A model generated the notes under the pieces. It was given only the letters and a program-made list of their open reading frames with translations. It made no database searches and was not told the DNA's origin. This document shows, one piece after another, positions 7,521-60,610 of a stretch of DNA of 64,000 nucleotides (positions are counted from its first letter, which is position 1; every line of letters starts with the position of its first letter). Source of the DNA: Niastella koreensis GR20-10 (GTDB lineage Bacteria > Bacteroidota > Bacteroidia > Chitinophagales > Chitinophagaceae); assembly GCF_000246855.1 (NCBI RefSeq), contig NC_016609.1, positions 3,100,001-3,164,000 of the forward strand. Direction: 5' to 3'. The position numbers and the translations under genes were made by a program.

Positions 7521-7604
7521 GGTCAGTGGTGAGTGGGTTCCTAGTTGCTCAGACGTCTAAACAATCGCGAGCTAACTCACTACAGACTACTCACTACTGA
7601 CTTA
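7521..7604. repeat. Inverted-repeat element with 38-nt core (copy C)
   Basis: Left arm 7521-7535 and right arm 7574-7601 are built from the words GTCAGTAGT and GAGTAGTCTG-like variants and are reverse complements of each other over about 14 bases. The core is 7536-7573 (38 nt) and runs GGTTCC...GCGAGCT, i.e. in reverse orientation to copies at 12044 and 22341. The outer edge abuts the TAA stop of the short-chain dehydrogenase (7602-7604, minus strand). It sits between two convergent reading frames. Confidence 0.75.
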
Positions 7605-8324
7605 AGGATTCATCCTGGCAAACATTTCCGCAATGCCCTCGTTATTCGCATTCACCCTTCCTTCGCTGAAACCAAATGACAATTCATTTTTTCCTTCTTT
7701 CATTTGTTGAAATATAGATTCAATGAATTCGCTTACCGCTGGATGTCCGTCGTGAATGCCTTTGCCGCCCAGATCGGTATTCAGGGCCGGTGGAATGATC
7801 TCTATTACTTCAACATTGGTGTCTTTTAACTGGTGCCGGAGCGATAAGGTGAACGAACGCATAAATGCTTTGGTGGCACTATAAACCGGCACTTTTGACA
7901 ATGGAACAAACGCCAACCCTGAGGTAACATTCATGACCGTAGTCAGTGATTTCAGTTTCAAAAAGAGTTTGGTAAGGTGAATGGGCGCTGTGATGTTGAT
8001 GTCAATTTCGCTTTGGGTGCGGTCGTAAAAATCGTCGTTCGTTATATTCATCCAGTTTTGGATACCTGCATTGTTAACCAACACATTCAGATCGGGATGG
8101 TTGGCTGCCACCCAGTTGAACAAATTAATGCGGTCGGCCTCGATGGCCAGGTCGCATACCTGGGTTATAACGCCGGGAAATTTATCGGCCACTTCCTGTA
8201 AGGCCGTTTCCCTTCTGCCGCAAACAATGACCGTGTTGCCTTCTTTTACAAATCTTTCCGTTAGTCCCAGGCCTATGCCGCTTCCCCCGCCGGTGATCAA
8301 AATTTTGTTGTTCGTTAGTTTCAT
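7602..8324 (-). CDS. Short-chain dehydrogenase/reductase (DltE-like)
   Basis: A 240-aa classical SDR. The NAD(P)-binding TGGGSGIG is at the N-terminus (residues about 10-18), NNAG is at about 87-90, and the catalytic YSATK follows a serine in NVTSGLAF. The sequence style (DltE/COG3967 group) is often seen in Bacteroidota. The substrate cannot be told from sequence. It is divergent from transketolase; the 150-bp gap contains GTTGGCCAAC (palindrome, 8364-8373) near a possible TAATTTTA -7 box. Confidence 0.85.
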   Translation of the reverse strand: MKLTNNKILITGGGSGIGLGLTERFVKEGNTVIVCGRRETALQEVADKFPGVITQVCDLAIEADRINLFNWVAANHPDLNVLVNNAGIQNWMNITNDDFYDRTQSEIDINITAPIHLTKLFLKLKSLTTVMNVTSGLAFVPLSKVPVYSATKAFMRSFTLSLRHQLKDTNVEVIEIIPPALNTDLGGKGIHDGHPAVSEFIESIFQQMKEGKNELSFGFSEGRVNANNEGIAEMFARMNP

Positions 8325-8475
8325 TGTTGTAAAGTTTGGGCAGTAAAATTACCTATAATGAGCGGTTGGCCAACTATTTAAAATGGGAGTGGCTAATAAT
8401 TTCTACAATTCCTGTTAACAAAGGATGGCACCTTAATTGTGCGCTTACCTTATTTATCATTTGAATATCATTTAT

Positions 8476-10347
8476 ATGAAAAATACAAGCGCCTGGGAAG
8501 AAAAGGCAAAATTATTGCGCAAATGGTGTCTGGTGTCAACAACTGCTGCAGGATCGGGACACCCAACCTCTTGTTTATCGGCTGCGGATATCGCCACGGT
8601 GTTATTTGATAAATATTTTACTTACGATGTTACAAACCCGTTGAACATTTACAACGACCGGTTTGTATTGTCCAAGGGGCACGCTGCTCCCCTGCTGTAT
8701 GCCCTGTTTGGCATGAGCAACGCTTATGATCTCAACGAATTAAAAACATTACGAAAACTTAACAGCAGGTTTGAAGGCCACCCGGTGCCTAAATACAAAT
8801 ATGCCGAAGCTGCAACGGGTTCGTTAGGACAGGGACTTTCCGTTGGGGCCGGTTTGGCCATTGCAGCCAAAAGAGAAAACCTGCCTTTTACCACGTATGT
8901 GTTGTGCGGTGATGGAGAACTGGCGGAAGGCCAGGTATGGGAGGCTGCCAATTTTGCATCGTATCACAAATTGAATAACCTGGTGGTTATTTTAGATATC
9001 AACCGCCTGGCACAAAGCGGCGAAACCATGTTTGGTCATCACATGAATGAATACGAACAGCGGTTCCGGGCTTTTAATTTCCGGGTATTTAATATCGATG
9101 GTCATAATTTCGATCAGATAGACCAGGCCCTGGAACAGGCTCATAGCCATGCAGGCCTGCAACCGGTGGCCATTATTGCCAGAACCGAAAAAGGCAAAGG
9201 CGTTTCTTTTATTGAAAATAAAGAAGGCTGGCATGGTAAGGCGTTAAAAGAAGACGAGCTGAAAAAAGCGCTGGATGAATTGGGACCCATCAACGACAAC
9301 GCCCGGTTTGAATTGCGGAAACCAGCCACTACCACGGTCCCTTCTGCCGAAGTAAAAATAAATACCGACATTAAAATGGATTTTGATAACGCCAAATCCT
9401 ATGCGACCCGCGAAGTATTTGGCGAAGTGTTGGCGCAGATCACCCAGCATACACCTAACATGTATGTGCTGGATGCCGATGTAAAGAATTCCACTTTTAC
9501 CGAAGACGCATTGAAGGTAACGCCTGAGCGTTTTGTAGAATGTTTTATTGCAGAACAGAACATGGTATCCGTAGGCGCGGGGTTATCAAGAATTGGGAAG
9601 ATCCCGGTAGTTGCCACTTTTGGCGCTTTCTTTATGCGTGCTGCCGACCAGATCAGGATGGCCCGTATTTCTGAAGCCAATATAAAATTGGTGGGATCGC
9701 ACGTAGGCGTTTCTATCGGGGAAGACGGCCCTTCGCAAATGGCGTTGGAAGATATTGCTTTCTTTGGCGCCCTGCCCGATGTGGTAGTGCTGCAGCCATG
9801 CGAAGCTGTTTCAACGGCCAGCCTGGTACCTCAAATGGTAAAACACAACGGTATGGTGTATATGCGCACGCTGCGACCGAAAACAAAACTGTTATATAAA
9901 CCTGGCGAAGAATTTAAGATCGGCGGTTCTAAAATAGTCCGGAAGTCAGATGATGATATGCTTACCGTTGCCGCTACCGGTATTACGGTGTACGAAGCAC
10001 TGCAGGCTGCTGACATGTTGAAGCAGGAAGACATCAACATCCGCGTAGTGGATTGTTATTCGATCAGTCCGATTGACAGGGAAACCTTGCAGGATTGCCT
10101 CCACACCACGCATTACAAATGCATTATTTCGGTGGAAGATCATTTTTCGCATGGCGGTTTGGGTGATTTTATTTCCGCAGCCGTTAGCGCCGAAGGGGTG
10201 TATGTAGAAAAGATGGCAGTGACACACATCTCCCAATCGGGTAAACAGGAAGAATTATTGAAAGACGCAGGCATCGATGCAGCTAGTATTGCCGCGAAAG
10301 TAAAGGAATTGGTGCGGTCAATGGAACAGGTGCATAGCCATGCTTAG
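8476..10347 (+). CDS. tkt: Transketolase
   Basis: The protein is 623 aa from ATG 8476, chosen over a TTG 39 bases upstream because transketolases begin just before AKxLRxxxLxxT. Thiamine-diphosphate signatures are clear: SGHP (27-30), KGHA (67-70), GDGELAEGQ from 145 and the closing N of the motif in VILDIN (176). The pyrimidine-binding domain has EDGPSQM, and there is a C-terminal transketolase domain. It transfers two-carbon ketol units between sugar phosphates in the non-oxidative pentose phosphate pathway, in the cytosol. The single-chain length of about 620 resembles the vertebrate-like class rather than the 660-residue E. coli type. The stop codon TAG overlaps the edge of a repeat element. 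Confidence 0.95.
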   Translation: MKNTSAWEEKAKLLRKWCLVSTTAAGSGHPTSCLSAADIATVLFDKYFTYDVTNPLNIYNDRFVLSKGHAAPLLYALFGMSNAYDLNELKTLRKLNSRFEGHPVPKYKYAEAATGSLGQGLSVGAGLAIAAKRENLPFTTYVLCGDGELAEGQVWEAANFASYHKLNNLVVILDINRLAQSGETMFGHHMNEYEQRFRAFNFRVFNIDGHNFDQIDQALEQAHSHAGLQPVAIIARTEKGKGVSFIENKEGWHGKALKEDELKKALDELGPINDNARFELRKPATTTVPSAEVKINTDIKMDFDNAKSYATREVFGEVLAQITQHTPNMYVLDADVKNSTFTEDALKVTPERFVECFIAEQNMVSVGAGLSRIGKIPVVATFGAFFMRAADQIRMARISEANIKLVGSHVGVSIGEDGPSQMALEDIAFFGALPDVVVLQPCEAVSTASLVPQMVKHNGMVYMRTLRPKTKLLYKPGEEFKIGGSKIVRKSDDDMLTVAATGITVYEALQAADMLKQEDINIRVVDCYSISPIDRETLQDCLHTTHYKCIISVEDHFSHGGLGDFISAAVSAEGVYVEKMAVTHISQSGKQEELLKDAGIDAASIAAKVKELVRSMEQVHSHA

Positions 10348-10413
10348 TGAGTAGTGAGTGGGTTCCCGAATGTTATGAAGCCCGAATAATCGCGAACCAT
10401 CGACAGCAAGTGG
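10345..10413. repeat. Inverted-repeat element with 38-nt core (copy D)
   Basis: The tkt stop TAG (10345-10347) is the first triplet of the left arm TAGTGAGTAGTGAGTG (10345-10360). The core 10361-10398 is again 38 nt, beginning GGTTCCCGAA and ending CGCGAACC, in the same orientation as copy C. The right arm (10399-10413) has degenerated. Confidence 0.65.
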
Positions 10414-10471
10414 AAGTTCACCACAAAAACAGTAAAAAAATAAAGGCATATTGCTTACTTTTGAAAGCAAT

Positions 10472-11050
10472 ATGACCGCCGCATTTGAAACCTATTTACG
10501 CAGCCACACCAGCCTGACCGATGCTGAAATTGAACAGATCGTTTCGGCAGCAATACCTGTTTCATTACAACGGAATGAAACGCTGTTGCAACAGGGCCAG
10601 GTATGCCGGCATAAAACGGTTATCGTAAAAGGGTTGCTGCGCATATATGGTACAGCAGCAGATGGCAGCGAGCACATTTTGCACTTCGCCCTTGAAAACG
10701 GATGGGCGGTAGATGCTGAAAGCTATCACCAGCAAACACCTTCCCAATTCACCATAGCCGCTGTTGAACATAGCGAATTGCTGCTATGGACCAAACCCGA
10801 TTTTGATCGCCTGTTAAAAGATATTCCGGAACTGAATGTATTGTCGGAACAGTTGGTGATCCGCAGTAATTTCAGCAATCGCAAACGGCTTTTTGCCTCA
10901 TTGAGTGCCACACCTGAAGAGAAATACGAAGATTTTGTAAAAACCAATCCCGATCTGCTGGCCCGTCTTCCCTTACACATGATAGCCGCTTATTTAGGCA
11001 TTTCACTGAAAACACTTACCCGCATCCGCCACGCACAGGTACGCCGTTAA
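10472..11050 (+). CDS. Crp/Fnr family transcriptional regulator
   Basis: A 192-aa protein with a cyclic-nucleotide-binding-like beta roll (residues about 20-115) and a C-terminal helix-turn-helix ending HMIAAYLGISLKTLTRIRHA. There are no cysteines typical of FNR clusters. Such short members are common as one-component regulators in Bacteroidota. The ATG at 10472 follows a TACTTTTG -7 box (10456-10463) so closely that the transcript would be nearly leaderless. The next gene on the same strand, an epimerase, is preceded by a perfect palindrome and is a natural target. Confidence 0.85.
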   Translation: MTAAFETYLRSHTSLTDAEIEQIVSAAIPVSLQRNETLLQQGQVCRHKTVIVKGLLRIYGTAADGSEHILHFALENGWAVDAESYHQQTPSQFTIAAVEHSELLLWTKPDFDRLLKDIPELNVLSEQLVIRSNFSNRKRLFASLSATPEEKYEDFVKTNPDLLARLPLHMIAAYLGISLKTLTRIRHAQVRR

Positions 11051-11059
11051 TTTAAATTA

Positions 11060-11073
11060 TGGTCAAATGACCA
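11060..11073. promoter_or_regulatory. Palindromic operator candidate TGGTCA-AA-TGACCA
   Basis: A perfect 6-bp inverted repeat with a 2-base spacer lies ten bases after the Crp-family gene and 56 bases before the epimerase ATG. The dyad size suits a Crp/Fnr dimer, so binding by the upstream regulator is a reasonable inference. Confidence 0.45.
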
Positions 11074-11128
11074 CGTTTTCGCGGATTGGTTGGCTGAATT
11101 TTGTACCATAAAATCAAGTCAATTAATT

Positions 11129-12016
11129 ATGCGAGTATTTGTTACAGGAGCTTCCGGTTTTGTAGGCTCCGCCGTTGTTAAAGAACTCCTGCAGGCCGGT
11201 CACCAGGTGTTGGGGATGGTGCGGAGCGACAGTGGCGCTGAAGCGGTAAAACAGGCAGGCGCAGAACCTTTTCGCGGCGATATCTATGACCTGGACAGTC
11301 TGAAAAAAGGCGCATCACAATGCGATGCAGTTATTCATACTGCCTTCAACCACGATTTTACCAAATTTAAAGACAATTGCGAAACCGACCGCCAGGTGAT
11401 CATGGCATTGGGCGCTGCATTAGCCGGCACCAATAAACCATTGGTGGTAACCTCCGGCGTGGGGTTGTTAAACTATGGCCGCGAGGTAAATGAAAACGAC
11501 AAGGCGCCTGGTTCAGATGTGATCCCCAGAGCGGCTTCTGAAGAAGCAGCTTATGCTGTTGCGGAGCAGGGTGTAAATTCTTACATTGTTCGTCTCCCAC
11601 CCTCTGTACATGCAGCCGGAGATCATGGGTTTGTACCTGTTCTTATTGGCATTGCCAAAGAAAAGGGCGCCGCTGCTTATATTGGCGAAGGCAATAATCA
11701 ATGGCCTGCCGTTCACCGGTTAGATGCTGCTGTTTTATACCGGTTGATCATTGAAAAGCAGCCTGCCCAAAAAGTATATCATGCTGTTGGTGAGCAAGGT
11801 ATTCCCTTTAAACAAATTACCGCTGCAATTGGTAAAGCATTACAGGTGCCGGTGGTGAGTAAAGAGGGTGCAGATGCCGAAGCCCATTTCGGTTGGTTTA
11901 AATATTTTGCATCAATTGGTTGTCCGGCTTCGAGTGAACAAACCCAGGCTACATTAGGTTGGAAACCGGTTCATCCCGGATTGATTGAGGAGTTGGTGCC
12001 GGGAATTTATTTTTAG
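11129..12016 (+). CDS. NAD-dependent epimerase/dehydratase family protein (extended SDR)
   Basis: A 295-aa protein starting MRVFVTGASGFVGSAV, the extended-SDR Rossmann motif, so ATG 11129 is preferred to the TTG at 11090. The typical active-site tyrosine (YxxxK) is not evident, since the region around residues 130-150 reads GLLNYGREVNENDK. This suggests an atypical SDR that binds NAD(P) but may not catalyse the standard reaction. The C-terminal half (AVYRL, KVYHAVGEQGIPFKQI) matches proteins annotated as NAD-dependent epimerases of unknown substrate. It lies downstream of a Crp-type regulator. Confidence 0.82.
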   Translation: MRVFVTGASGFVGSAVVKELLQAGHQVLGMVRSDSGAEAVKQAGAEPFRGDIYDLDSLKKGASQCDAVIHTAFNHDFTKFKDNCETDRQVIMALGAALAGTNKPLVVTSGVGLLNYGREVNENDKAPGSDVIPRAASEEAAYAVAEQGVNSYIVRLPPSVHAAGDHGFVPVLIGIAKEKGAAAYIGEGNNQWPAVHRLDAAVLYRLIIEKQPAQKVYHAVGEQGIPFKQITAAIGKALQVPVVSKEGADAEAHFGWFKYFASIGCPASSEQTQATLGWKPVHPGLIEELVPGIYF

Positions 12017-12095
12017 TCAGTAGTGAGTAGTCAGTAGTGAGTGAGCTCGCCATTATTCAGACCTTCGATTAATCGGGAACCCACTCACTACTCAC
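12014..12095. repeat. Inverted-repeat element with 38-nt core (copy A)
   Basis: The epimerase stop TAG (12014-12016) is the edge of the left arm (12016-12043), made of two copies of GTCAGTAGTGAGT. The core is 12044-12081 (AGCTCGCCAT...CGGGAACC, 38 nt). The right arm 12082-12095 (CACTCACTACTCAC) pairs with the inner 14 bases of the left arm with one mismatch. The right arm also contains the stop of the small minus-strand frame at 12092. Confidence 0.8.
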
Positions 12096-12292
12096 TTCTT
12101 CACATAAATAAACCCCTTCCTCCCCGACTGAAACTTGGTTTCAATTATTTTATAATCAGCTACTTGGTTTTTATCTCCCCTTTTAGTCTTCTTCCAAATG
12201 TCTCTATTTGAACTTGTTCCAGCTGTAAGGTGCCGTACGAGAATAAATAAGGCATATACTGTTATAAATTGGTGATAAAGGTAATTTCTCAT
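12092..12292 (-). pseudogene. Small frame, possible gene remnant
   Basis: A 66-codon frame whose C-terminal part (VADYKIIETKFQSGRKGFIYVKK is the region, residues about 44-66) looks like real coding sequence, while the N-terminal part does not. The start codon lies inside a 14-bp palindrome and the stop lies inside a repeat arm. It may be the surviving 3' end of a lost gene. No family was recognised. Confidence 0.25.
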
Positions 12293-12360
12293 GAGAAAAG
12301 ACGCATCCTTGTAAAGAAATGACTCATTCTTTTAAAGAAAAGGAAATTTCCCATGAGAAA
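12285..12360. repeat. Pair of CATGAGAAA palindromes
   Basis: TTTCTCATGAGAAA (12285-12298) is a perfect 14-bp palindrome. TTTCCCATGAGAAA (12347-12360) repeats it with one mismatch just before the stop of the phosphodiesterase gene. Between them AAAGAAATGACTCATTCTTT (12314-12333) is also near-palindromic. The stretch carries no convincing gene. Confidence 0.5.
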
Positions 12361-12363
12361 TCT

Positions 12364-13314
12364 TTAAAAACTCAACAATTTACCCTGCTCCGGGAAAACC
12401 AGCTTTACATGTAGCGGATTGTTTGCCTTTAATTGCACATGGATCATTTGTTCGCGATTACCGCCGGGTTTAATGTGCGTAATAACTACCGGGAAATTAT
12501 TTAATGCATCGGCGCCGGAAAGTGCTGCCAGGTCTTGTAATTCGCTCATTAACCAATGTGGGGTAAGATGACCGAACAATTGTTTATCCGATTGTTCATT
12601 GGCGAAAGACACTTCAATAAACAACGCTTTTAATTTTTTAGCTTTTAACAAGGGCGCTACCTGTTGCCAGAGCTGGTGCATTTTATCGGAATGTTCTACT
12701 GAATCGGCGCCGGTATCACCCAGGTACAATATGTACGATTCATTATGCCGAACCAGGAACGCGGTGCTTTGATAGGGCGCGGAATGGCTGAGTGAAAAAG
12801 CCGTTACCTGCATCTCGGTATTTTGCAGCGGCGTTTCGCTGCCGGGGGTAAGTGTGGTATAATGATATTTACCCAATGCCGGTTTCTCGCCTTCATTGGC
12901 AAAGTTGGCCCAACTCTTCCAGGAAAAGTATTTATCCTTCAGTACTTCCAAACAATAATCAAGCCCGTAGATGGCCTTGGTGCTGTCATCGGGTGAGTTG
13001 ATGATCAAACCTGCCAGGTGATCGAGGTGTGCATGTGAGATCAGGTAGCCTTTTATATCTTTCTTCAACACCTCCGCCGAAGTACCTTTTAACAATTTCG
13101 CCTGAATGGCTTTTTCAATCCCATAATGTATAGTACCTGCATCCAGGCAAACCCAGGCATCGCTGCCGGTTGGCGCTATCATGTAGGCCGATAAATTACT
13201 TTCGTCAATTCCGCCTTTTACGCCAAGCGGAATAATCTTAAAGGATGATTGAGAGAATGAATGATTGCAAAAAAGTAAACAGGCAAATGCAAGGGTAACA
13301 AAAACTGGCTTCAT
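12364..13314 (-). CDS. Secreted class II 3',5'-cyclic-nucleotide phosphodiesterase
   Basis: A 316-aa metallo-beta-lactamase-fold protein with a signal peptide (cleavage near SFSQ). The motif SHAHLDHLAGLIINSP matches the class II cyclic-nucleotide phosphodiesterase signature (H-x-H-L-D-H-x-x-G-x-x-x-x-S-[AP]) and gives the dinuclear metal ligands. Further ligands are in SLSHSAP, YLGDTGAD and the late FGHLTPHW and THIKP. The family hydrolyses cAMP or cGMP; the signal peptide points to an extracytoplasmic location, as for Vibrio CpdP. The physiological substrate outside the cell is unclear. Confidence 0.85.
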   Translation of the reverse strand: MKPVFVTLAFACLLFCNHSFSQSSFKIIPLGVKGGIDESNLSAYMIAPTGSDAWVCLDAGTIHYGIEKAIQAKLLKGTSAEVLKKDIKGYLISHAHLDHLAGLIINSPDDSTKAIYGLDYCLEVLKDKYFSWKSWANFANEGEKPALGKYHYTTLTPGSETPLQNTEMQVTAFSLSHSAPYQSTAFLVRHNESYILYLGDTGADSVEHSDKMHQLWQQVAPLLKAKKLKALFIEVSFANEQSDKQLFGHLTPHWLMSELQDLAALSGADALNNFPVVITHIKPGGNREQMIHVQLKANNPLHVKLVFPEQGKLLSF

Positions 13315-13340
13315 GGGGTAAAGCTAACAATAAATCATAA

Positions 13341-13547
13341 TCACTCCATTACCGGCAACTGAATATGTGAAGGGGCATTGGCCGAATACAGGTCCTTTTG
13401 TTTGGCCTGCCGGGGTGGCCAGCTGTCGTAGCTTTTCCAGGGATTACTACCGGTTTGAAACGTGATGGCTTCGGCAAAATTTCCATCGCCTTTTCCTTTC
13501 AGGTAGAAGGCATATCCTAAAATAAAAATTATTACGCAGTCAGTCAA
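13341..13547 (-). pseudogene. C-terminal fossil of a CocE/NonD (glutaryl-7-ACA acylase-like) hydrolase
   Basis: The 68-codon frame contains KGKGDGNFAEAITFQTGSN followed by PWKSYDSWPPRQAKQKDLY, which is the conserved late region of X-Pro dipeptidyl peptidase/CocE-type hydrolases. After DLY it jumps to SANAPSHIQLPVME and a stop, so a piece is missing there too. Intact enzymes are about 600 aa and secreted. Only this terminal fragment remains, next to the phosphodiesterase. Confidence 0.6.
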
Positions 13548-13577
13548 ACGAATTTTGCCTGCTTATTACACACTGCT

Positions 13578-13739
13578 TTAAAGATTCAATCTTCCTTTCA
13601 TATCATCATTGCCGGGCTTGTTGTTCTGGATGGCGGTTTTGCCAAACTTGTAGGTCAATGCAATTACAAACTGACGGCTGTCAGTGTAATGGTCACCCCA
13701 TAGTTGAATATTACCATTATTGGAACGGAAAGTATAACC
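13578..13739 (-). pseudogene. C-terminal fossil of an outer-membrane beta-barrel (TonB-dependent-receptor-like) protein
   Basis: Read on the minus strand, 13739 down to 13578 gives YTFRSNNGNIQLWGD, then SRQFVIALTYKFGK and finally DDMKGRLNL with a TAA stop. This is the form of the last two strands and tail of CarboxypepD-regulatory/outer-membrane-receptor barrels. There is no start and no upstream coding sequence. It breaks at 13740, where a plus-strand fossil begins. Confidence 0.5.
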
Positions 13740-13968: not shown

Positions 13969-13983
13969 TATGTATTAGTTGCA

Positions 13984-16021: not shown

Positions 16022-16110
16022 AAGTCGGTAATTTAGGTAATGACGTACGGTTTAAACCCGTAATATTATAACAAAACCATATAATTGTTGTGCCCGGCTA
16101 AACATTTTAA

Positions 16111-16338
16111 CCGCATCTTAACCACAACAGACGTTATTTTAAAGATTATCATGCGTTTGTAGACGAATTGCTACAAAATAAATGGGGGCGGCAGTATGCC
16201 ACCGTAACTCCTCTGGGCTTTGCTTGTGCTATTATGTGTATGGAGGACAATAATAAATTACGGGTGGTTGGTCGATTCATTTTTTTAATAATAAAAGCTT
16301 TTTACCAGGCTCGGTTAGATATTTTTCCAGTTGTTTGA
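16111..16338 (+). pseudogene. Possible gene fragment
   Basis: A plus-strand frame without start codon reads NHNRRYFKDYHAFVDELL, QNKWGRQYATVTPLGFA and CAIMCMEDNNKLRVVG between 16123 and 16266, with a composition like real protein. After that it overlaps the 3' end of the minus-strand gene at 16277. I do not recognise the family. The rest of 16022-16276 shows nothing else. Confidence 0.25.
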
Positions 16339-17002
16339 TCTTACATACAACATCCAGATCTGTGTCATAAGGCCGGGCGACATGCGGAAAACAATATTCT
16401 TTATAAAAGACAATTTCATAAGCCGCGATCGAGATGTTGTTTTCATCTGCTTTCTCATTACACTCCTTATAGGTGTCTTTTATTAAGGTACTGTCTTCAG
16501 ACTTTGAATATTCCTCACTGATGAACTGGTTGATCCTGCTGTTTCGCTCGTTCGACAGGAATTTCCGGAGATAGTTTAATCCGGCCGTTGTAAAAAGATC
16601 TTTTGCTGCGATCAGGTTTCCGGTATGCAGGTTGAAATTGTAATATTCTTTATAGTGTTCCGGATGGGCGCCCATGCTCTCTATGTCAAATGACAGGGAC
16701 AGTATCTGCGCGTTGTTTACTGCTACTTTATAGTTAAGCCCGGTGTAGCCTGCCTGTTGATTGCTGTCTGTATTTATATATTTAGAATTTTCAAAAATCT
16801 TAGTGGGACTGGTCTCCATTTTTTCATTGCTCAATATGTTGCTTTGCAGATACCTGTTTATGTTATTGGCTATGGTTGTATTTTTTGCATGGATAAGCGG
16901 AAATGAGTGATCGTTCTTATCCGTAAGCGTAGAGATCTGAACCTGGGCTTTGGCCGGATAAGAGGTTAGTATAAACAGGGTAAGGCATACGTTTATATTC
17001 AT
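16277..17002 (-). CDS. Secreted protein of the DUF3298/RsiV-like type
   Basis: A 241-aa protein with a short signal peptide (ending AKAQ). The central part has LSLSFDIESMGAHPEHYKEY, YNFNLHTGNLIAAKDLF and NYLRKFLS, the layout of DUF3298 domains, in which a tyrosine-rich strand precedes a gain-of-structure helix. The family is found in RsiV-like and peptidoglycan-deacetylase-associated proteins; here it is free-standing and its role is unknown. It is divergent from the gene at 17070. Confidence 0.6.
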   Translation of the reverse strand: MNINVCLTLFILTSYPAKAQVQISTLTDKNDHSFPLIHAKNTTIANNINRYLQSNILSNEKMETSPTKIFENSKYINTDSNQQAGYTGLNYKVAVNNAQILSLSFDIESMGAHPEHYKEYYNFNLHTGNLIAAKDLFTTAGLNYLRKFLSNERNSRINQFISEEYSKSEDSTLIKDTYKECNEKADENNISIAAYEIVFYKEYCFPHVARPYDTDLDVVCKIKQLEKYLTEPGKKLLLLKK

Positions 17003-17069
17003 AATGGTGAGTTTAAACCAACGGGCTTTTGTTTACATTCGAAGTAAACTTATTAAAAAATCAGGTATT

Positions 17070-17681
17070 ATGTTACAAAACCGGGTAAATCCATTGGGTG
17101 AAATTATCCGCACGGCTGCCAGGGGCGCCTGGATGGGCAACCGGGGCCTGCTGCATAATGACAGGAAGGAAATCGTTCGGCCATTCCGGTTACTGGCCTG
17201 GATTACCTGTGTGCTTTCATTTAAAGACAGGAAGCGAACGGTAATGTCACCGGGCTTATATACCGAACTGTTTTTTATGGATGAAGCCACTGCTTTTGCG
17301 GCGGGCCATCGCCCCTGTTATGAATGCCGGAGGGAAGATTATAAACGATTTAAAGAATACTGGCTAAAAGGGAATTCCGCCTACCATTTCAATGATAAAA
17401 CCAGCATCAATGAAATTGATGCGATCCTTCACAAGGAGCGCATGGGAACAGGTAATTCCAAAGTAACATTCGCCGCGGACATCAGCGAATTGCCCGATGG
17501 AACGTTTGTGTGGTTCGACGAAAGGCCTTTTTTAATAAAGGGTGATTGGTTGTACCAATGGTCACCGGCCGGTTATGGTACCGGTATTGCGAAACCTGGT
17601 AAAATGGAGGTGGTTGTGCTTACGCCTGCTTCAACAGTAAATGCATTTAAGGCTGGTTATCTTCCGCAAACGGGGGTGTGA
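17070..17681 (+). CDS. Conserved protein of unknown function with an HRPCxECRR motif
   Basis: A 203-aa cytosolic protein. ATG 17070 was chosen because MLQNRVNPLGEIIRTAARG is the conserved opening of this family. The block FMDEATAFAAGHRPCYECRR, with two cysteines and a nearby histidine, suggests a small metal site. The C-terminal half is beta-rich (GTFVWFDERPFLI, WSPAGYG). The function is unknown; homologues are present in many Bacteroidota and Proteobacteria as hypothetical proteins. Confidence 0.75.
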   Translation: MLQNRVNPLGEIIRTAARGAWMGNRGLLHNDRKEIVRPFRLLAWITCVLSFKDRKRTVMSPGLYTELFFMDEATAFAAGHRPCYECRREDYKRFKEYWLKGNSAYHFNDKTSINEIDAILHKERMGTGNSKVTFAADISELPDGTFVWFDERPFLIKGDWLYQWSPAGYGTGIAKPGKMEVVVLTPASTVNAFKAGYLPQTGV

Positions 17682-17915
17682 TATGGGTATAAAAATCCTG
17701 CTTTCGGAGATGTGATAAATCCTTTCCCCGAAATGGATCGATCATCGGTGTTAAAAATAATGTCTCAATTGGGTCTAAAAGAAGCGCGTTGTTATCCGTA
17801 TATGTCCTGGCTCAGCATTCATTTATCAAAAGAGGTAAACCGAAGGGTAACGGCCGTGTTTGAATTTTTGGCCCAATGTTTTCGGAAGGGAGGATTATTT
17901 ATAGAACACGACTAA
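17682..17915 (+). pseudogene. Possible C-terminal remnant of a LysR-type regulator
   Basis: In the frame of the preceding gene, right after its stop, the sequence runs YGYKNPAFGDV, then VLKIMSQLGLKEARCYPYMS, LSIHLSKEVNRRVTAVFEFL and AQCF. The stretch YPxxxxLSxxVxRxxxFLAxxF is like the end of LysR substrate-binding domains. No helix-turn-helix part exists upstream. Its last 21 bases overlap the small gene on the other strand. The assignment is weak. Confidence 0.3.
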
Positions 17916-18056
17916 TGAAATGATCCAAATGGTTGCAATGATCATGAGGGCCTGATAATAACTCCAGCCTTCGCTAAGGCCGTTTTCCTTATCATAATTA
18001 GCCAAACTGATAAAGGCCCCGATTACAGGGATCCAATAAACTGATTTGTTAGCCAT
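17895..18056 (-). CDS. 53-residue membrane protein at the end of the ECF42 operon
   Basis: The minus strand from 18056 reads MANKSVYWIPVIGAFISLAN, then YDKENGLSEGWSYYQ and a second hydrophobic stretch ALMIIATIWIISLVVFYK before TAA at 17895-17897. There are two hydrophobic segments (residues about 5-19 and 34-52) with a short charged loop. The ATG lies only ten bases after the sigma-factor stop, so it is almost surely co-transcribed. No family was recognised. The position suggests a partner or regulator of the sigma factor, but this is inference only. Confidence 0.6.
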   Translation of the reverse strand: MANKSVYWIPVIGAFISLANYDKENGLSEGWSYYQALMIIATIWIISLVVFYK

Positions 18057-18066
18057 AAAGAACTGA

Positions 18067-19302
18067 TTATTGTTCCATCAATTTAAGTATTTTATTGGAG
18101 ATTATCAACTTGTCTGCTGTTGATTTGGTTAACGCCAATGCTTTATTAAAATGCTCAATGGCTTTTGTGTTGTTGATACCTGTATACAATTCACCCAACA
18201 GGGAGTGGTATAAATGGTGCCCGGTCAGGTTTATCTTTTCCGCTTCAATAATGGCTTCTTTTTTTCCGCGGGCTTTGGCCAGGGCATAGGTTCTGTTTAA
18301 GGCTGCAATGGGTGAATACTCAATGAGCAACAGATGATTATACATAAATAAAATACTTTCCCATTTGTTTTCCGAATCGGCTTTAATTGTGTGCCAGTAA
18401 GCAATGCCGGCCTCCAGGTGATACTTTGAAAGGGTGTTTCCTTCTGATGCCTGGTTCAGGAAGTACTCCCCTTTTTCAATCAGTTCCTGGTTCCAAAGGG
18501 TGGTATCCTGGTCCTGGTACAGCACTATTCCGCCATGCTGGTTCAGTCTTGAATCAAATCTTGATGAATGAAAACACATCAGGGATAGCAGGGCATTGAC
18601 TGCCGGCTGGTTCAGGTGCTCGTTCTCAATAAGCATATAAGTCAGGCGCATGGCCTCCAGGCAAAGGTCCTGGCGAAGGGTAATGTCCTGGCTGGAGGAA
18701 TAATAGCCTTCGTTAAAAAGCAGGTATAAGACGGTTAAAACGGCTGGTAAGCGGTCGTTTATTTCTGATGAGGTTGGTTGTTCTATTTTTATTTTCTCGG
18801 TTCTTAACTTTTCTTTCGCCCGTTGCAGGCGTTTATAAATAGCCGTTTTATTGGTGAGAAAGGCGTTCGCAATTTCATCAACGCCAAAACCGCAAAGCAG
18901 GTTTAGTGCCAGGCCTATTTGCGCTTCGGCAGCATTGCAGGGATGGCAAACCACAAACATCATTGCCAGCTGGCTGTCGTTTATATTTTTAACTGACAGG
19001 TCAATTTCTATTTCTTCTGAAGTGGTAGCGGTATATTTTATTTCTTTTGAGATATTCTGAGCAAACAAGGTGTTGCGCTTCAGGTAATCTTTTGTTTTGT
19101 TTTTGGCAACGGTATACAACCAGGCCGTAGGGTTTTCGGGAAGCCCTTTCAACCCCCATAATTCCGATGCTAAAAGAAAAGTGTCGCTTACGATGTCTTC
19201 CGCAATTTCAATATGGTCAATGCCAAATAATTTACTGAGTACAGAAACTATCTTCCTGTACTCGGTCCTGAATAAATGCGGTATTAATTCGGCTTGTTGC
19301 AT
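18067..19302 (-). CDS. ECF42-type RNA polymerase sigma factor with C-terminal TPR-like extension
   Basis: The protein is 411 aa from ATG 19302 (MQQAELIPHLFRTEYRKIV), chosen over an upstream start that would add 26 residues encoded by an inverted repeat. Sigma region 2 is at about 10-75 (EIAEDIVSDTFLLA, NPTAWLYTVAKNKTKDYLKR) and region 4 at about 120-170 (LLCGFGVDEIANAFLTNKTAI). A roughly 220-residue helical extension follows with LLFNEGYYSSS and TPR-like repeats near the end (ALNRTYALAKARG, HLYHSLLGELY). This architecture and the adjacent YciI/DGPF gene are diagnostic of group ECF42, in which the extension replaces a classical anti-sigma factor. Confidence 0.9.
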   Translation of the reverse strand: MQQAELIPHLFRTEYRKIVSVLSKLFGIDHIEIAEDIVSDTFLLASELWGLKGLPENPTAWLYTVAKNKTKDYLKRNTLFAQNISKEIKYTATTSEEIEIDLSVKNINDSQLAMMFVVCHPCNAAEAQIGLALNLLCGFGVDEIANAFLTNKTAIYKRLQRAKEKLRTEKIKIEQPTSSEINDRLPAVLTVLYLLFNEGYYSSSQDITLRQDLCLEAMRLTYMLIENEHLNQPAVNALLSLMCFHSSRFDSRLNQHGGIVLYQDQDTTLWNQELIEKGEYFLNQASEGNTLSKYHLEAGIAYWHTIKADSENKWESILFMYNHLLLIEYSPIAALNRTYALAKARGKKEAIIEAEKINLTGHHLYHSLLGELYTGINNTKAIEHFNKALALTKSTADKLIISNKILKLMEQ

Positions 19303-19311
19303 AAAAGTGTG

Positions 19312-19383
19312 AAGATGACCTGTCGGGTGCGCGCAAACCCTTTGATAATTCAAGCTCAAATGGCGCACCTGACAGGTCATCTT
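19312..19383. repeat. 21-bp inverted repeat between DGPF gene and sigma gene
   Basis: Arms 19312-19332 (AAGATGACCTGTCGGGTGCGC) and 19363-19383 are reverse complements with a single mismatch at position 14. Each arm also contains an imperfect ACCTG/CAGGT palindrome. The 30-base loop lies in the leader of the sigma cistron, whose ATG is only nine bases downstream on the minus strand. In RNA it would form a long hairpin next to the start codon. Confidence 0.7.
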
Positions 19384-19401
19384 TGCGTTTTCAAAATTAC
19401 G

Positions 19402-19743
19402 CTATAATACACTAATCTCTCTTATCTCAACATTGCCACCTGCCGCCAGGATGGGGCAGCCTTTTGCCAGTTCTGTTGCCTCTTCTTCCGTATTGGCTTT
19501 TACAATGCTATACCCTACAATAGATTCTTTTATTTCGGTGTAAGGACCGTCGGTAATCACATTGCCGGGGTTCAATACCTTACCGGTTTGCACCAGTCTG
19601 TTGCCGCGGTCGGTTAATTTGTTTTGAGCAGCAATGCCGCCTATCCAATCCATCCAGCGTTTGGTGCTGGCTTGCATTTCTTCGGGTGAACGTTTGGGCA
19701 TGGCTGCGATATCGGTTCTGAATATTAAAAGAAAATCTTTCAT
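19402..19743 (-). CDS. YciI/DGPF-domain protein
   Basis: A 113-aa protein of the YCII-related (DGPF) family, opening MKDFLLIFR and carrying ITDGPYTEIKES, a DGPY variant of the motif that names the family, then GYSIVKANTEEEA. The fold is ferredoxin-like with a conserved His/Asp pocket, but the biochemical role of stand-alone members is unresolved. These genes are the standard neighbours and targets of ECF42 sigma factors. The start at 19743 is preferred because it precedes the conserved first strand. Confidence 0.88.
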   Translation of the reverse strand: MKDFLLIFRTDIAAMPKRSPEEMQASTKRWMDWIGGIAAQNKLTDRGNRLVQTGKVLNPGNVITDGPYTEIKESIVGYSIVKANTEEEATELAKGCPILAAGGNVEIREISVL

Positions 19744-19795
19744 TTTATTTAGCATTTAAATTTTTTTGAAAAATAGCATCGGACGGTAAACGAAT

Positions 19796-20359
19796 TTACT
19801 GTACGCTCGTGTAATGGATAATGTGAACGCCGTTTTTTAACTGCCGGCTGTCCTCATATTTTAGCAGGCGCATGGCATCCAGGGTCAGCTTGTCGAAAAG
19901 CCTGCTATCACCGTTACCCGCAATCAGGGGCTGAAAGCAAAAGTAATAATCGTCGACCAGGTTCATGTCTGTTAATGACGCTACCAGGCCCAGGCTGCCG
20001 ATTGTGAGTAATCCTTTCTGAGCTTTTTGTTTATACCTGTTGATCTTTTCGGCATCCACTTTAGGTTCAATGGTTGAATTGTTCCAGGTGGCCGATTTCA
20101 GGGTTGATGAATAAGCAGCTTTGTGTTTGTTGTGCAGTGCAGCGGCCATTTTTATCTGGTGGTCCGGGCTGTTTTCATCTTCCAGCCTGGCCGGCCAGAT
20201 GTCCTGGAACATCGTGAACGTATTGCCGCCAAAGGCTACCGTTTCGGTTTCTGCCAGCAGCTCGTGTACAAATTCATAAAACTCTGCATCGGTGGTGGCG
20301 TATTTGCCGTCGGTAAACCCATCGGGGGTGATGTTGACCATGCATATTACTCGTCCCAT
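19796..20359 (-). CDS. Dihydrofolate reductase/RibD C-terminal family protein
   Basis: A 187-aa protein of the RibD_C fold: MGRVICMVNITPDGFTDG at the start, AFGGNTFTMFQDIWP in the middle, and DYYFCFQPLIAGNGDSRLFD near the end, which binds NADPH in relatives. It lacks the residues that define true folate reductases, so the substrate is open. It begins the YciI-sigma-small-protein transcription unit; 36 bases separate it from the YciI frame. A candidate ECF promoter ends 30 bases upstream. Confidence 0.85.
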   Translation of the reverse strand: MGRVICMVNITPDGFTDGKYATTDAEFYEFVHELLAETETVAFGGNTFTMFQDIWPARLEDENSPDHQIKMAAALHNKHKAAYSSTLKSATWNNSTIEPKVDAEKINRYKQKAQKGLLTIGSLGLVASLTDMNLVDDYYFCFQPLIAGNGDSRLFDKLTLDAMRLLKYEDSRQLKNGVHIIHYTSVQ

Positions 20360-20375
20360 TTGTTGAAATTTTGGT

Positions 20376-20440
20376 GTTTAAAAACTAATGACGATCGGCT
20401 TTCGGGGATTGGACAGCTTTGGGAAAGTTTTTTCAGCAGG
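20376..20440. repeat. Direct repeat, copy 1 (shared promoter block)
   Basis: About 62 bases starting GTTTAAAAACTAATGACGAT recur at 20938-21000 with roughly 80 percent identity, the differences lying mostly at the far end. Each copy is directly upstream of a minus-strand gene, so this is a duplicated promoter region and not a mobile element. Confidence 0.7.
20390..20415 (-). promoter_or_regulatory. Candidate ECF42 promoter TGTCCA-N16-CGTC (copy 1)
   Basis: On the minus strand TGTCCA (20415-20410) is followed after 16 bases by CGTC (20393-20390). The whole surrounding block of about 60 bases is repeated upstream of the NTF2-like gene with the same spacing. CGTC-type -10 and TGTC-type -35 elements are those expected for ECF sigma factors of this group. 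The leader to the reductase ATG would be about 24 bases. Confidence 0.6.
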
Positions 20441-20920
20441 TTAATTTTTCCCGCGGTCGCTGCTAAACGATTCCCGGAACATTTTCCAGCCGGCCGGGGT
20501 TTTCTTCCACAACACCTGGAATTTGCCATTGTCAAAAAGCTGGTTATTGGCGCCATATGTTTCCCAAAAACCTACTTCGGTAACATATTCAGCGGCATCG
20601 CCAAATACGTCTATAGTAATAAACTTACCATTTCTAAGGCCAAACTTATTATAGGCGATGTTGAAGATCTGGTGCGGCGCCTCTATACCGCAAAGTGTAG
20701 GCATGTTGGGGATCATGATCCAGCAGTCTTTTGTATAGCGGTCAATCAGCAGGGCTGAGTCGTTTTTGGCGAAAGCCTGGAAATATAATTCATTGCTGGC
20801 TTCAATTTGCTTTTTGGCTTCCTGCAGGTTCTTGTTGGCGGTTTGCTGCGCCATGCTTTTTAAAAACAAAAATGACATCAGTAAGCATTGGCCTGATGTC
20901 ATTATTAATTTCTTCTTCAT
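20441..20920 (-). CDS. Secreted NTF2-like (SnoaL/DUF4440) protein
   Basis: A 159-aa protein with a signal peptide (ending KSMAQ) and a cystatin-like NTF2 fold: IEASNELYFQAFAKNDSALL at the helix, DRYTKDCWIMIPNMP, then the strands YVTEVGFWETYG and FQVLWKKTPAGWKMFRESF. Members act as small-molecule isomerases or binding proteins. A specific ligand cannot be named. It has its own candidate ECF promoter and so probably belongs to the ECF42 regulon together with the reductase and YciI genes. Confidence 0.82.
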   Translation of the reverse strand: MKKKLIMTSGQCLLMSFLFLKSMAQQTANKNLQEAKKQIEASNELYFQAFAKNDSALLIDRYTKDCWIMIPNMPTLCGIEAPHQIFNIAYNKFGLRNGKFITIDVFGDAAEYVTEVGFWETYGANNQLFDNGKFQVLWKKTPAGWKMFRESFSSDRGKN

Positions 20921-20937
20921 TAGCTAAAAACTTTAAT

Positions 20938-21000
20938 GGTTTAAAAACTAATGACGATCGACTTTGAGGGATTGGACAGGTTTGCAGAAATATTTTTAAG
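20938..21000. repeat. Direct repeat, copy 2 (shared promoter block)
   Basis: Second copy of the block at 20376-20440; identical over TTTAAAAACTAATGACGATC and conserved through GGATTGGACAG. It is located between the NTF2-like gene start and the end of the membrane protein gene. Confidence 0.7.
20953..20978 (-). promoter_or_regulatory. Candidate ECF42 promoter TGTCCA-N16-CGTC (copy 2)
   Basis: Minus-strand TGTCCA (20978-20973), a 16-base spacer and CGTC (20956-20953), the same arrangement as copy 1. The predicted leader to the NTF2-like ATG at 20920 is about 26 bases. Confidence 0.6.
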
Positions 21001-21652
21001 CCACTTGTTTGGTATTCCTGTCAGCCCAATACGCCAGCAGCACAAATAACCATTGAAATTGCGCGCTCCAGGCCAGAGCGGTTTCGCTGGCTGGCGCTGG
21101 TCCCCAGGTGCTGGACAATTGTACCAGTACAAACAGTGCGATCAGCACGCCAAAAACTACTTTGCCCAGCGTATTTTTGAATTGAACAGTGCGGAGATAG
21201 AGCACCATGCCGGTTACAAAGATTATGATCTCTATAATAATTTCAACCATGGGTGAACCCCACAAACCTAACCCCACATGGGTAGAATTGTTAGTTGGCA
21301 ACAGTGGCAGATCGCCAAAGTGAACAAAGAAATCGAGCGCCCAATGGCTGAATACCGCTGCGCCCAATATAAACGCATTCCTGGCATTCTTTTTAACCAG
21401 AAGGTATATACCCCCAAATAATACCGACCAGCCCAATGCGCCTATAAGACTGTGTGTATAGGGATAACTTTTAAACTCCAAAATGCGGTTGCCACTGAGT
21501 TCGGGATGGATAATAACATTCTCTATATGCAACAGTAAGAAGGTTGGCCAGATCAGGTCCAACAATTGAACTGCAATAAACAAAGTTCCGAGAGAGATAG
21601 CGGGTGCGGTCTTTTTAAGCCCCATGCCTACGCCGAAATGTCCTATAAACAT
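20996..21652 (-). CDS. Integral membrane protein (YdjM/DUF457-like hydrolase fold)
   Basis: A 218-aa protein with about six membrane segments. The opening MFIGHFGVGMGLKKTAP and the histidines in YPYTHSLIGALGW and FSHWALDFFVHFGD resemble the membrane-bound metal-dependent hydrolase family (YdjM/DUF457), in which conserved His/Asp face the membrane. Activity is uncertain. It is downstream of a Crp-family gene on the same strand with a 60-base gap, which suggests co-transcription or regulation by it. Confidence 0.65.
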   Translation of the reverse strand: MFIGHFGVGMGLKKTAPAISLGTLFIAVQLLDLIWPTFLLLHIENVIIHPELSGNRILEFKSYPYTHSLIGALGWSVLFGGIYLLVKKNARNAFILGAAVFSHWALDFFVHFGDLPLLPTNNSTHVGLGLWGSPMVEIIIEIIIFVTGMVLYLRTVQFKNTLGKVVFGVLIALFVLVQLSSTWGPAPASETALAWSAQFQWLFVLLAYWADRNTKQVA

Positions 21653-21712
21653 GTATCATATGATTTAGGATTCAAATATCATCGAAAAGAAAATTGCATC
21701 GCTTGACTTTTG

Positions 21713-22285
21713 TCAAGAACTTATTCTTTTCCGGATCCGGCTCAGCGTTTCGGGCGACATCCCCATCATGGAGGCCAGGTATTGCAACGGCACTTCATTA
21801 AAAAGTGCAGGATTGTAATTGAACAGCCATTTGTAGCGGTCTTCTGCGCTCATTGACAACAGGGAGAACACGCGCTGTTCCATAAATACAAAACAACGGG
21901 CAATGAAGAGTTTTTCGAGCTGGTGCCATTTGGGAACAGCCTTCTCCATAGCATTATATTCCGTACGGTTGAGGGTATAACATTCGCAATCGGTGAGGGC
22001 CTGGATATACCATTTTGAAACGTCGTGAAACAGCATGCCTGCCAGATCGGTGATAAAACCGCCCTTGCCTGCGATCCACTGGGTAATTTCCTGGCCACTG
22101 TCATCGATCAGGTATACCCGCATTAAGCCCGACTGCAAAAAGCTGAGTGAATTACAAACTTTGCCAGGCTTTAAATAATATGAGCCTTTTTGAATGGTTT
22201 CGGGTTGAAAAAAGGAGGCGACCAGTTGAAGGTCTGTTCCCGTAATATTCCAGAACGATGAGATATAGGTTTCCAGTTCATTCAT
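21713..22285 (-). CDS. Crp/Fnr family transcriptional regulator
   Basis: A 190-aa protein with cyclic-nucleotide-binding-like beta roll (about 25-115; KGSYYLKPGKVCNSLSFLQS, GLMRVYLID) and a C-terminal helix-turn-helix (LQYLASMMGMSPETLSRIRK). It is a second, distinct relative of the protein at 10472. The arrangement regulator then membrane protein is common for this subfamily in Bacteroidota. A repeat element lies 28 bases upstream of its start. Confidence 0.85.
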   Translation of the reverse strand: MNELETYISSFWNITGTDLQLVASFFQPETIQKGSYYLKPGKVCNSLSFLQSGLMRVYLIDDSGQEITQWIAGKGGFITDLAGMLFHDVSKWYIQALTDCECYTLNRTEYNAMEKAVPKWHQLEKLFIARCFVFMEQRVFSLLSMSAEDRYKWLFNYNPALFNEVPLQYLASMMGMSPETLSRIRKRISS

Positions 22286-22312
22286 AGGGTCAAATATAAG
22301 AATAGTTAATAA

Positions 22313-22406
22313 GTGAGTAGTGAGTAGTCAGTAGTGAGTGACCTCGCTATCATTCTGACCTTCCAACAATCGGGAACCCACTCACTACTGACTACTCACT
22401 ACTGAC
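22313..22406. repeat. Inverted-repeat element with 38-nt core (copy B, best preserved)
   Basis: The arms at 22313-22340 and 22379-22406 are 28 bases each and pair in 27 of 28 positions. Both consist of the word GTCAGTAGTGAGTA repeated twice. The core 22341-22378 is 38 nt (ACCTCGCTAT...CGGGAACC). The arm ends four bases before the TAG of a minus-strand coding tail (22410-22412). The arms hold stop codons in all frames. Confidence 0.85.
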
Positions 22407-22496: not shown

Positions 22497-22497
22497 C

Positions 22498-60563: not shown

Positions 60564-60610
60564 ATGATTAATTAATACTAAAAAATTACTTTGTGAAATA
60601 AAGCGGCTTT

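What the first reader, a model, noticed from the sequence alone, without database searches (positions are those of the whole stretch)
7521..22406. Four copies of an intergenic palindromic element with a core of exactly 38 nt
Copies A (12014-12095), B (22313-22406), C (7521-7604, reverse orientation) and D (10345-10413, reverse orientation) share arms made of the word GTCAGTAGTGAGTA and a core that is 38 nt in every case. The core begins RSYTCGC, has a conserved ATTATTC-like stretch, and ends CGGGAACC. Copy B pairs over 28 bp with one mismatch. Equal core length with diverged middle sequence suggests a constrained RNA or protein-binding structure, and not random decay. I know of no described family with this plan.
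Basis: seen in the sequence. Interest (0 to 1): 0.8.

Follow-up and report, generated by a model that had tools for sequence, protein, structure and literature searches.

The report
Heptad-armed palindromes abutting stop codons
A soil bacterium's genome carries dozens of small hairpin-forming DNA elements, each with arms of short repeats around a middle of nearly fixed length, that have spread into the gaps right after genes end; they behave like a new branch of the known bacterial 'extragenic palindrome' repeats.

Summary
The four copies belong to a family of at least 56 places in this 9.03-Mb genome. The canonical element is 94 nt: four 7-nt units (GTGAGTA/GTCAGTA), a 38-nt imperfect-palindrome core, four inverted units. 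The core is 38 nt in 36 of 55 places and 35-40 nt in 51 of 55. Copy D has lost its right arm.

The family is one of many in this genome and its relatives with tandem units of 7, 8 or 9 nt. Elements sit flush against gene ends: 49 of 60 flanking stop codons lie within 15 nt (44 of 56 places examined). In related species orthologous spacers lack an element, hold the same family, or hold an unrelated one; no target-site duplication was found.

Best reading: non-autonomous, REP-like palindromic insertions that spread into gene 3' ends, mobiliser unidentified. A Y1 transposase (TnpA) link is inconclusive. No compensatory base changes were found, so a conserved RNA structure is not shown. Inverted heptamer arrays near stop codons are known in Xanthomonas, paired tandem 7-8-nt arrays in Geobacter. 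New here: the core of held length, three unit lengths, and different families at orthologous sites.

The parts
12016..12095 (-). Copy A: four heptads (12016-12043), 38-nt core (12044-12081), two heptads (12082-12095). First base is the third base of the upstream gene's TAG stop. Strand given = GGTTCCC-first strand of the core.
22313..22406 (-). Copy B, canonical 94-nt element: four heptads (22313-22340), core (22341-22378), four inverted heptads (22379-22406)
7522..7601 (+). Copy C: two heptads (7522-7535), core (7536-7573), four heptads (7574-7601); between convergent genes, 12 nt and 0 nt from their stops
10347..10398 (+). Copy D: two heptads (10347-10360) and core (10361-10398); right arm absent; overlaps the TAG stop (10345-10347) of the transketolase-like gene
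42641..42813 (.). Element of another heptad family: long GGCTTAA array, core ending TTCGCGAGCCC, TTTGCCG units on the other side (limits by eye)
22496..22532 (.). Heptad array of another family (CAGCGTT)
39674..39712 (.). Heptad array of another family (ACGCTGA)
60605..60693 (.). Heptad stretch of another family (CTTTAGC / GCGTTAG units after an ACGCTGA-like start; limits by eye)
62013..62059 (.). Heptad array of another family (AACTAAG), 4 nt after a stop codon
38519..38551 (.). Octad array (GTTAACCT type)

Best explanation
The four copies are members of a non-autonomous, dispersed palindromic insertion family, REP-like in behaviour. The canonical element is 4 x 7 nt + 38 nt + 4 x 7 nt (94 nt). 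SHOWN: high copy number at unrelated loci; a filled-versus-empty comparison at one orthologous site with conserved flanks; strong placement directly after stop codons and between convergent genes, often overlapping the stop codon; no target-site duplication; persistence of some copies between species; different families at orthologous sites. INFERRED: a factor acting in trans copies the element through a single-stranded hairpin form (absence of a duplication fits HUH/Y1-type or repair-type copying better than a cut-and-paste DDE transposase); insertions survive mainly at gene 3' ends because they are tolerated there; once transcribed, the long hairpin forms an mRNA 3' stem-loop that may protect or end transcripts. 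The mobilising enzyme is not identified.
For: Copy number: 55 places by model plus copy D (only 150 of 2497 first-look candidates scored); matches in 8 of 10 genus genomes, own included.

Element size: arms of 4+4 units in 22 of 44 placed copies; 16 of 18 arrays of this family in the 864-kb sample have 4 units.

Placement: 49 of 60 stop sides within 15 nt (26 outside the element, 23 overlapping it) against 11% expected for uniform insertion; 1 divergent spacer of 43.

Insertion: at L188:10755 this genome holds a GTGAGTA element, G004 a GGCAATC element, G009 none; all three keep two opposed terminator hairpins on either side (by eye). Copy B is absent in G004 and G009; copy C is in G009, not in G004; G004 has an intrinsic terminator where D lies.

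Orthologous spacers (95 pairs): arrays on both sides 12, own only 16, relative only 6, neither 61 (OR 7.6, p 3e-4). Stricter filter 9/14/7/65, p 0.0025; only stretches not picked for a hit 5/9/5/42, p 0.04. By eye 8 of 11 credible co-occupied pairs hold different families, one of doubtful site equivalence (L039:13849).

No duplication: longest shared flank word 3.18 nt against 3.13 shuffled, 44 elements.
Against: No mobiliser is linked: reading the ORFs between neighbouring copies at four loci showed ordinary-looking genes (no family search was run on them), and the element beside the aro-locus tnpA is of another heptad family. No match in 50,697 phage or 72,556 plasmid records, and no exact match to one 23-nt pattern in viral contigs. 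No strain-level polymorphism could be examined, so current mobility is not shown. Only one clean three-way filled/empty site was resolved. Different families at one site could also reflect a need for some hairpin there. Start sides are also closer than uniform insertion predicts (8 of 27 within 15 nt against 10.5%, p 0.005, 3 of them negative distances), so part of the closeness is not specific to stops. Spacer pairs are not independent (some own spacers are compared with two relatives). ORF ends came from a simple ORF caller, and heptads contain stop codons.
Confidence: 0.6

Rival explanations
1. Mobilised in trans by the Y1 (HUH) transposase encoded between the aroG-like and aroB-like genes (142 aa, subclass-1.2-like TnpA), as REPs are by RAYTs.
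For: The gene gives one match in each of the 10 genus genomes and lies at the same place; a heptad palindrome (by eye) lies directly upstream in 9 of 10. Its tyrosine motif YLDKQEEHH fits the Y---Q--HH signature of subclass 1.2 (PMC6006769, section 18 read). Three genomes of other genera have both a TnpA relative and arrays (G020, G071, G076). Absence of target duplication fits a Y1 enzyme.
Against: No GTGAGTA unit pair occurs in the fetched loci of either Y1_Tnp place; the upstream elements are of other heptad families (GGCAATC or GTGAATG types); upstream post-stop spacers commonly hold such elements anyway; G009 has 54 R2 matches (both strands) but no element at tnpA. In ten genomes of other genera: both 3, TnpA relative only 2 (G010, G011), arrays only 2 (G042, G034), neither 3 (G013, G018, G038), on 20-80 kb each. 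Genus members G001 and G007 have TnpA and no array in 40 kb each.
Confidence: 0.15
2. A selected transcript-end structure: hairpins needed at gene ends, built or exchanged as terminators or mRNA stabilisers.
For: Placement after stops and between convergent genes; by eye an ordinary intrinsic terminator in G004 at the site of copy D, and terminator-like hairpins in G004 at sites A and B; B folds at -48.8 and -52.8 kcal/mol as RNA on its two strands; more G.T than A.C pairs on one strand (92 against 30 cells) and a more stable RNA on that strand in 17 of 25 copies, p 0.002.
Against: No compensatory changes; mixed orientation (27/22); no U-tract enrichment at the edges (TTTT within 10 nt outward at 7 of 88 edges, background 5.4%); at L188:10755 the element sits between two complete terminators and is absent in G009.
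Confidence: 0.15
3. Made in place by DNA slippage: small hairpins whose arms grow in 7-9-nt steps by foldback copying, with no transposition.
For: Many unrelated units share only the period: 7, 8, 9 common, others tested nearly absent (control periods 5, 6, 10-13 in 1 of 190 spacer sequences).
Against: The core is shared by 56 unlinked places; arm length centres on 4 units (22 of 44 copies 4+4) rather than being broad; filled/empty comparison.
Confidence: 0.08
4. Binding site for a chromosome-organising protein (the IHF/HU idea proposed for Geobacter arrays).
For: Paired inverted tandem 7-8-nt arrays in Geobacter metallireducens were annotated as putative global regulator sites (PMC2700814, passages seen).
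Against: Placement tracks gene ends, not promoters; units of different families share no sequence by eye. Binding itself was not testable here.
Confidence: 0.02

Closest known systems
REP elements (GTAG- and CGTC-tagged palindromic repeats; PMC3733652, section 15 and passages seen)
   Same: Extragenic, high copy, palindromic; in the two species diagrammed there most convergent copies lie within 20 bp of both ORF ends; termini often supply the TAG stop codon; some grouped or doubled
   Different: 94 nt rather than 20-40; arms are tandem heptads; no one-ended GTAG/CGTC tag (GTAG recurs at heptad joints on both arms); no linked RAYT shown
Inverted GGGAATC heptamer arrays of Xanthomonas (Rehm 2015, PMC4692102, passages seen)
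   Same: Tandem heptads, most arrays of four units, often as inverted pairs (70 and 75 cases in two species), intergenic, many within 50 bp of or overlapping stop codons; generally not found with mobile elements
   Different: Unit is G-tract-bearing and quadruplex-forming there, not here; no fixed core mentioned in the passages seen
Tandem octa-/heptanucleotide paired sites of Geobacter metallireducens (PMC2700814, passages seen)
   Same: Three to five tandem 7-8-nt units, mostly paired on opposite strands, multicopy
   Different: Distance between the paired sites is variable; interpreted as regulator sites; different unit sequences
TAACTGA heptamer repeats of Beggiatoaceae, cyanobacteria and some Bacteroidetes (MacGregor 2015, PMC4679880, abstract and section 10 read)
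   Same: Intergenic heptad arrays; author states no transfer mechanism is evident; indels mostly in 7-nt steps between two Cyanothece strains
   Different: Direct repeats, in the Maribeggiatoa genome mostly upstream of start codons; no palindrome with core described in the parts read
Foldback (FB/Galileo) elements of Drosophila (recalled, no call)
   Same: Inverted ends built of short tandem repeats around a loop
   Different: Eukaryotic, kilobase scale, DDE transposase with target duplications; analogy only

Membership tests
REP element | Multicopy extragenic palindrome | tested here: met
   56 places; the 44 with flanks lie at gene edges or in spacers; palindromic
REP element | Next to 3' ends of convergent or co-directional genes, often giving the stop codon | tested here: met
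   49 of 60 stop sides within 15 nt; 1 of 43 divergent; 23 stops overlap the element
REP element | Length 20-40 bp with GTAG or CGTC tag at one end | tested here: not met
   94 nt; GTAG recurs at heptad joints in both arms
REP element | RAYT gene flanked by members of the same family | tested here: not met
   No GTGAGTA unit pair within the loci fetched around the two PF01797 places (about 1.5 kb each side); L030 has another heptad family upstream of tnpA
MITE / IS terminus | Inverted ends with target-site duplication | tested here: not met
   Inverted ends yes; flank words no longer than shuffled (44 elements)
MITE / IS terminus | Autonomous relative with the same ends | tested here: inconclusive
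   ORFs between neighbouring copies at four loci read by eye, no transposase seen; genome not exhaustively searched
Inverted heptamer arrays (Xanthomonas type) | Inverted tandem heptads near stops, mostly four units | tested here: met
Inverted heptamer arrays (Xanthomonas type) | G-tracts able to form quadruplexes | tested here: not met
   Units GTGAGTA/GTCAGTA have no G-tract
Rfam structured RNA | Match above gathering score | tested here: not met
   No match in the 64-kb window
Conserved RNA structure | Compensatory base changes beyond chance | tested here: not met
   4 pairs; 480 of 500 shuffles as many

The most novel reading that the evidence does not exclude
Bacterial genomes of several phyla may share an unrecognised class of non-autonomous palindromic elements whose ends are about four tandem units of 7-9 nt around a short core. 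The unit sequence turns over freely while unit length and number are kept, and unrelated families colonise the same gene-end sites again and again. Constant unit number and length with free sequence would point to one shared copying machine that measures length rather than reads sequence.
Probability: 0.2. Interest if true: 0.85.

Novelty: new variant of a known kind. Interest (0 to 1): 0.55.

Why it matters
Heptamer arrays have been noticed piecemeal in cyanobacteria, Beggiatoaceae, Xanthomonas and Geobacter, with no mechanism of spread given in the parts of those papers seen here. In this genus they are organised as defined palindromic insertion elements. Comparison of species shows empty sites, inherited copies and different families at orthologous sites, so the question of how they move becomes testable. 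Many convergent gene ends are affected in the stretches compared (13 of 19 convergent spacer pairs hold an array in at least one of the two species, loose filter; 11 of 19 with the stricter filter; some stretches were chosen because they hold elements), which bears on how transcripts end there.

Tried and rejected
Rfam scan: nothing. Covariation as proof of an RNA element: failed. Target-site duplication: none. U-tract after the element: not enriched (7 of 88 edges, background 5.4%). TnpA/RAYT link: looked strong at first (element upstream of tnpA in 9 of 10 genus genomes), then weakened, since the upstream elements are of other families, post-stop spacers often hold elements, and across ten genomes of other genera the two do not clearly go together. 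Autonomous copy between neighbouring copies: none seen. Presence on phages, plasmids, viral contigs: none found. Heptads as backup stop codons: considered, not pursued, since several unit types carry few stops. The R1 model was built from the wrong alignment and never used. One of the 12 co-occupied spacers (L200:2734) is an AT-rich false positive and is left out of the 11; in another (L039:13849) the own spacer is 439 nt against 107 and holds coding-like sequence, so site equivalence is doubtful. The stricter filter drops some real elements (for example D, C, and the own copy at L188:10755).

Core-arm modularity: the GTGAATG-armed elements beside tnpA score above background for the GTGAGTA core in only 2 of 6 loci (L073, L075), so it is not claimed as shown. 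Tandem unit numbers: nonads in the sample mostly have 3 units (7 of 12), at the detection floor, so 'four units' rests on heptads and octads.
Full report
WHAT IS THERE. Reading the window and the repeat finder confirmed the four copies. Copy B is complete: 29-nt arms, 97% complementary, 38 nt apart. The arms are not one 14-nt word but tandem 7-nt units, mostly GTGAGTA and GTCAGTA, with A, T or G at the last place. The window lies at 3,100,001-3,164,000 of a single 9,033,684-bp contig; that size is the one I recall for Niastella koreensis GR20-10 (recalled).

FAMILY. blastn with copy B gave 93 matches on both strands (40 of 72 candidates scored). A covariance model of 25 copies (R2; 4 of 29 loci dropped beforehand as duplicate or odd) gave 104 strand matches at E up to 0.01, which are 55 places; copy D makes 56. 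Only 150 of 2497 first-look candidates were scored, so 56 is a lower bound; the three weakest places have E between 1e-4 and 4e-3. Core length from the model span: 38 nt in 36 of 55, 35-40 in 51 of 55, two of 72 and 74, one 56, one 16. Arms of 4+4 units occur in 22 of 44 placed copies. The canonical element is therefore 28+38+28 nt.

STRUCTURE. The core is itself an imperfect palindrome: 31 symmetric pairs around a 4-nt loop over 66 columns, 84.1% of cells paired. Compensatory changes are not above shuffles (4 pairs changed on both sides; 480 of 500 shuffles as many). The imperfections are conserved: a non-standard pair at columns 20/47 in 25 of 25 (C.C in 21), G.T at 15/52 in 20, T.G at 17/50 in 22. 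G.T cells outnumber A.C cells 92 to 30 on the GGTTCCC-first strand, and that strand folds better as RNA in 17 of 25 copies (p 0.002). Copies share ancestry, so these counts are not independent. They give the element a polarity, but the polarity is not aligned with the neighbouring gene: 27 same, 22 opposite.

PLACEMENT. Flanking DNA was in hand for 44 of 56 places. Of 60 stop-codon sides 49 lie within 15 nt of the element edge (23 overlap it, 26 outside); of 27 start sides 8 do, 3 of them with negative distances. Of 17 convergent spacers 10 abut both stops, so the element is nearly the whole spacer. Only 1 of 43 spacers is divergent. Uniform insertion would put 11% of stops and 10.5% of starts within 15 nt; the stop excess is large (p 2e-36), the start excess small (p 0.005). 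ORFs came from a simple caller. Checked against orthologues, the stop position is unchanged for A and D, while at C in G009 the element supplies the stop. T-tracts do not follow the elements more often than background (7 of 88 edges against 5.4%).

MANY FAMILIES. In 41 own-genome stretches (864 kb) period-7 arrays number 32 at a strict cut-off, none in a 3-mer-shuffled control; at a looser cut-off 67 of period 7, 28 of period 8, 9 of period 9, and at most 2 for the other periods tested (5, 6, 10, 11, 13). Units look unrelated between families. Non-GTGAGTA heptad clusters also favour stops: 17 of 34 stop sides within 15 nt against 5 of 33 start sides (of 51 clusters, those of the GTGAGTA type (13) and those inside ORFs (5) were left out). 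Units per array, with a detection floor of three: GTGAGTA family 4 in 16 of 18; other heptads 4-5 in 23 of 39; octads 4 in 13 of 32, 5 in 7, 3 in 8; nonads 3 in 7 of 12. Among relatives arrays were seen in G003, G006, G009, G004, G020, G034, G042, G071 and G076, and not in the 20-60 kb sampled from each of G001, G007, G010, G011, G013, G018 and G038.

RELATIVES. R2 matches occur in 8 of 10 genus genomes, own included; none in G005 and G006. In the family sample 5 of 79 genomes match, own and G007 among them. The hits shown from other genera (G042, G076, G089) have GTGAGT-type heptads but other or shorter cores.

ORTHOLOGOUS SITES. In the synteny of window 6.5-24.5 kb: C is in G009 with a shortened core and absent from G004; D is in G009 as five units beside a terminator, and in G004 there is only an intrinsic terminator; at A, G009 has a different heptad palindrome starting inside the stop codon; B is in neither. 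At the glyA-like locus (L188) one copy is kept in all three species with unit-number changes. At L188:10755 the own genome carries a GTGAGTA element and G004 a GGCAATC element, between the same two opposed terminators that in G009 stand without an insert (by eye). Over 95 orthologous spacer pairs, arrays in both 12, own only 16, relative only 6, neither 61 (Fisher p 3e-4). With stricter filters 9/14/7/65 (p 0.0025); non-divergent spacers of at least 40 nt 9/11/4/26 (p 0.02); stretches not picked for a hit 5/9/5/42 (p 0.04). Of the 12, one is an AT-rich false positive; of the other 11, by eye 8 hold different families (one of doubtful site equivalence) and 3 the same. For own spacers with GTGAGTA units: same type in the relative 5, other array 4, none detected 6, of 15 pairs. 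Control periods appear in 1 of 190 spacer sequences.

MECHANISM. Copies arrive at new sites and flanks show no duplication (3.18 against 3.13 nt), so a duplication-making DDE transposase is unlikely. A single-strand route is the likeliest (inference). The obvious candidate, a subclass-1.2-like Y1 TnpA between aroG-like and aroB-like genes, gives one match in each of 10 genus genomes and has a heptad palindrome directly upstream in 9. But these belong to other heptad families, and in ten genomes of other genera TnpA relatives and arrays occur together in 3, TnpA alone in 2, arrays alone in 2, neither in 3. NCBIfam scores it 53.8 against a 55 cut-off for IS200 and 24.2 against 80 for RAYT. A search with the tnpA-adjacent element gave 35 matches in the own genome (40 of 61 candidates scored), 30 of them 34 nt or shorter, that is, arms only. 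I leave the mobiliser open.

LITERATURE. REPs show the same placement and stop-codon supply (PMC3733652, section 15 read). Xanthomonas GGGAATC arrays are inverted in 70 and 75 cases, mostly four units, near stops, and generally not found with mobile elements (PMC4692102, passages). Geobacter has paired three-to-five-unit arrays (PMC2700814, passages). TAACTGA arrays: 'no mechanism is evident' (PMC4679880, abstract and section 10). The listings of searches showed no title or abstract start that describes this element; most subscription papers are not in that library.

VERDICT. A real, orderly family: REP-like in behaviour, a new variant of inverted short-unit arrays, mobile over evolutionary time, with unknown machinery.

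Noticed in passing
window 38519-38551; L036, L041, L044, L188 and others: Octad (GTTAACCT, GATAATGT, GTTATTGA) and nonad (GTTGATAGA) arrays form further families in spacers, often beside stop codons.
   Followed up: partly
L031:1183-1785 and 2145-2672 (minus strand): Tandem pair of RAYT-like proteins (NF047646, 75.6 and 58.2 bits, cut-off 80); no GTGAGTA units in the fetched locus.
   Followed up: partly
L225, L227, L228, L229, L231, L232, L233, L235: Relatives of the aro-locus TnpA in other genera stand beside short palindromes such as CCGCGGACTGAAGTCCGCGG (by eye); PMC6006769 says subclass 1.2 generally lacks typical terminal IS200 structures. Subclass assignment here is by motif only.
   Followed up: no
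L030:1435-1863 (minus strand): IS200-like TnpA gene, one match per genome, held between aroG-like and aroB-like genes in the 10 genus genomes, so apparently inherited vertically.
   Followed up: partly
L192:13972 orthologous spacer in G004 (L246): Roughly 80-nt units, each with GGCAGAG-like heptads and a CCGGACCTTCGCT..CAGGTCCG palindrome, repeated in tandem about four times.
   Followed up: no
window 20376-20433 and 20939-20996: A 58-nt direct repeat, 84% identical; the second copy has a counterpart in the orthologous spacers of G004 and G009.
   Followed up: no
window 40999-41089: Array of an 18-nt self-complementary unit (GTATAGTACTATACATCC), about 4 copies.
   Followed up: no
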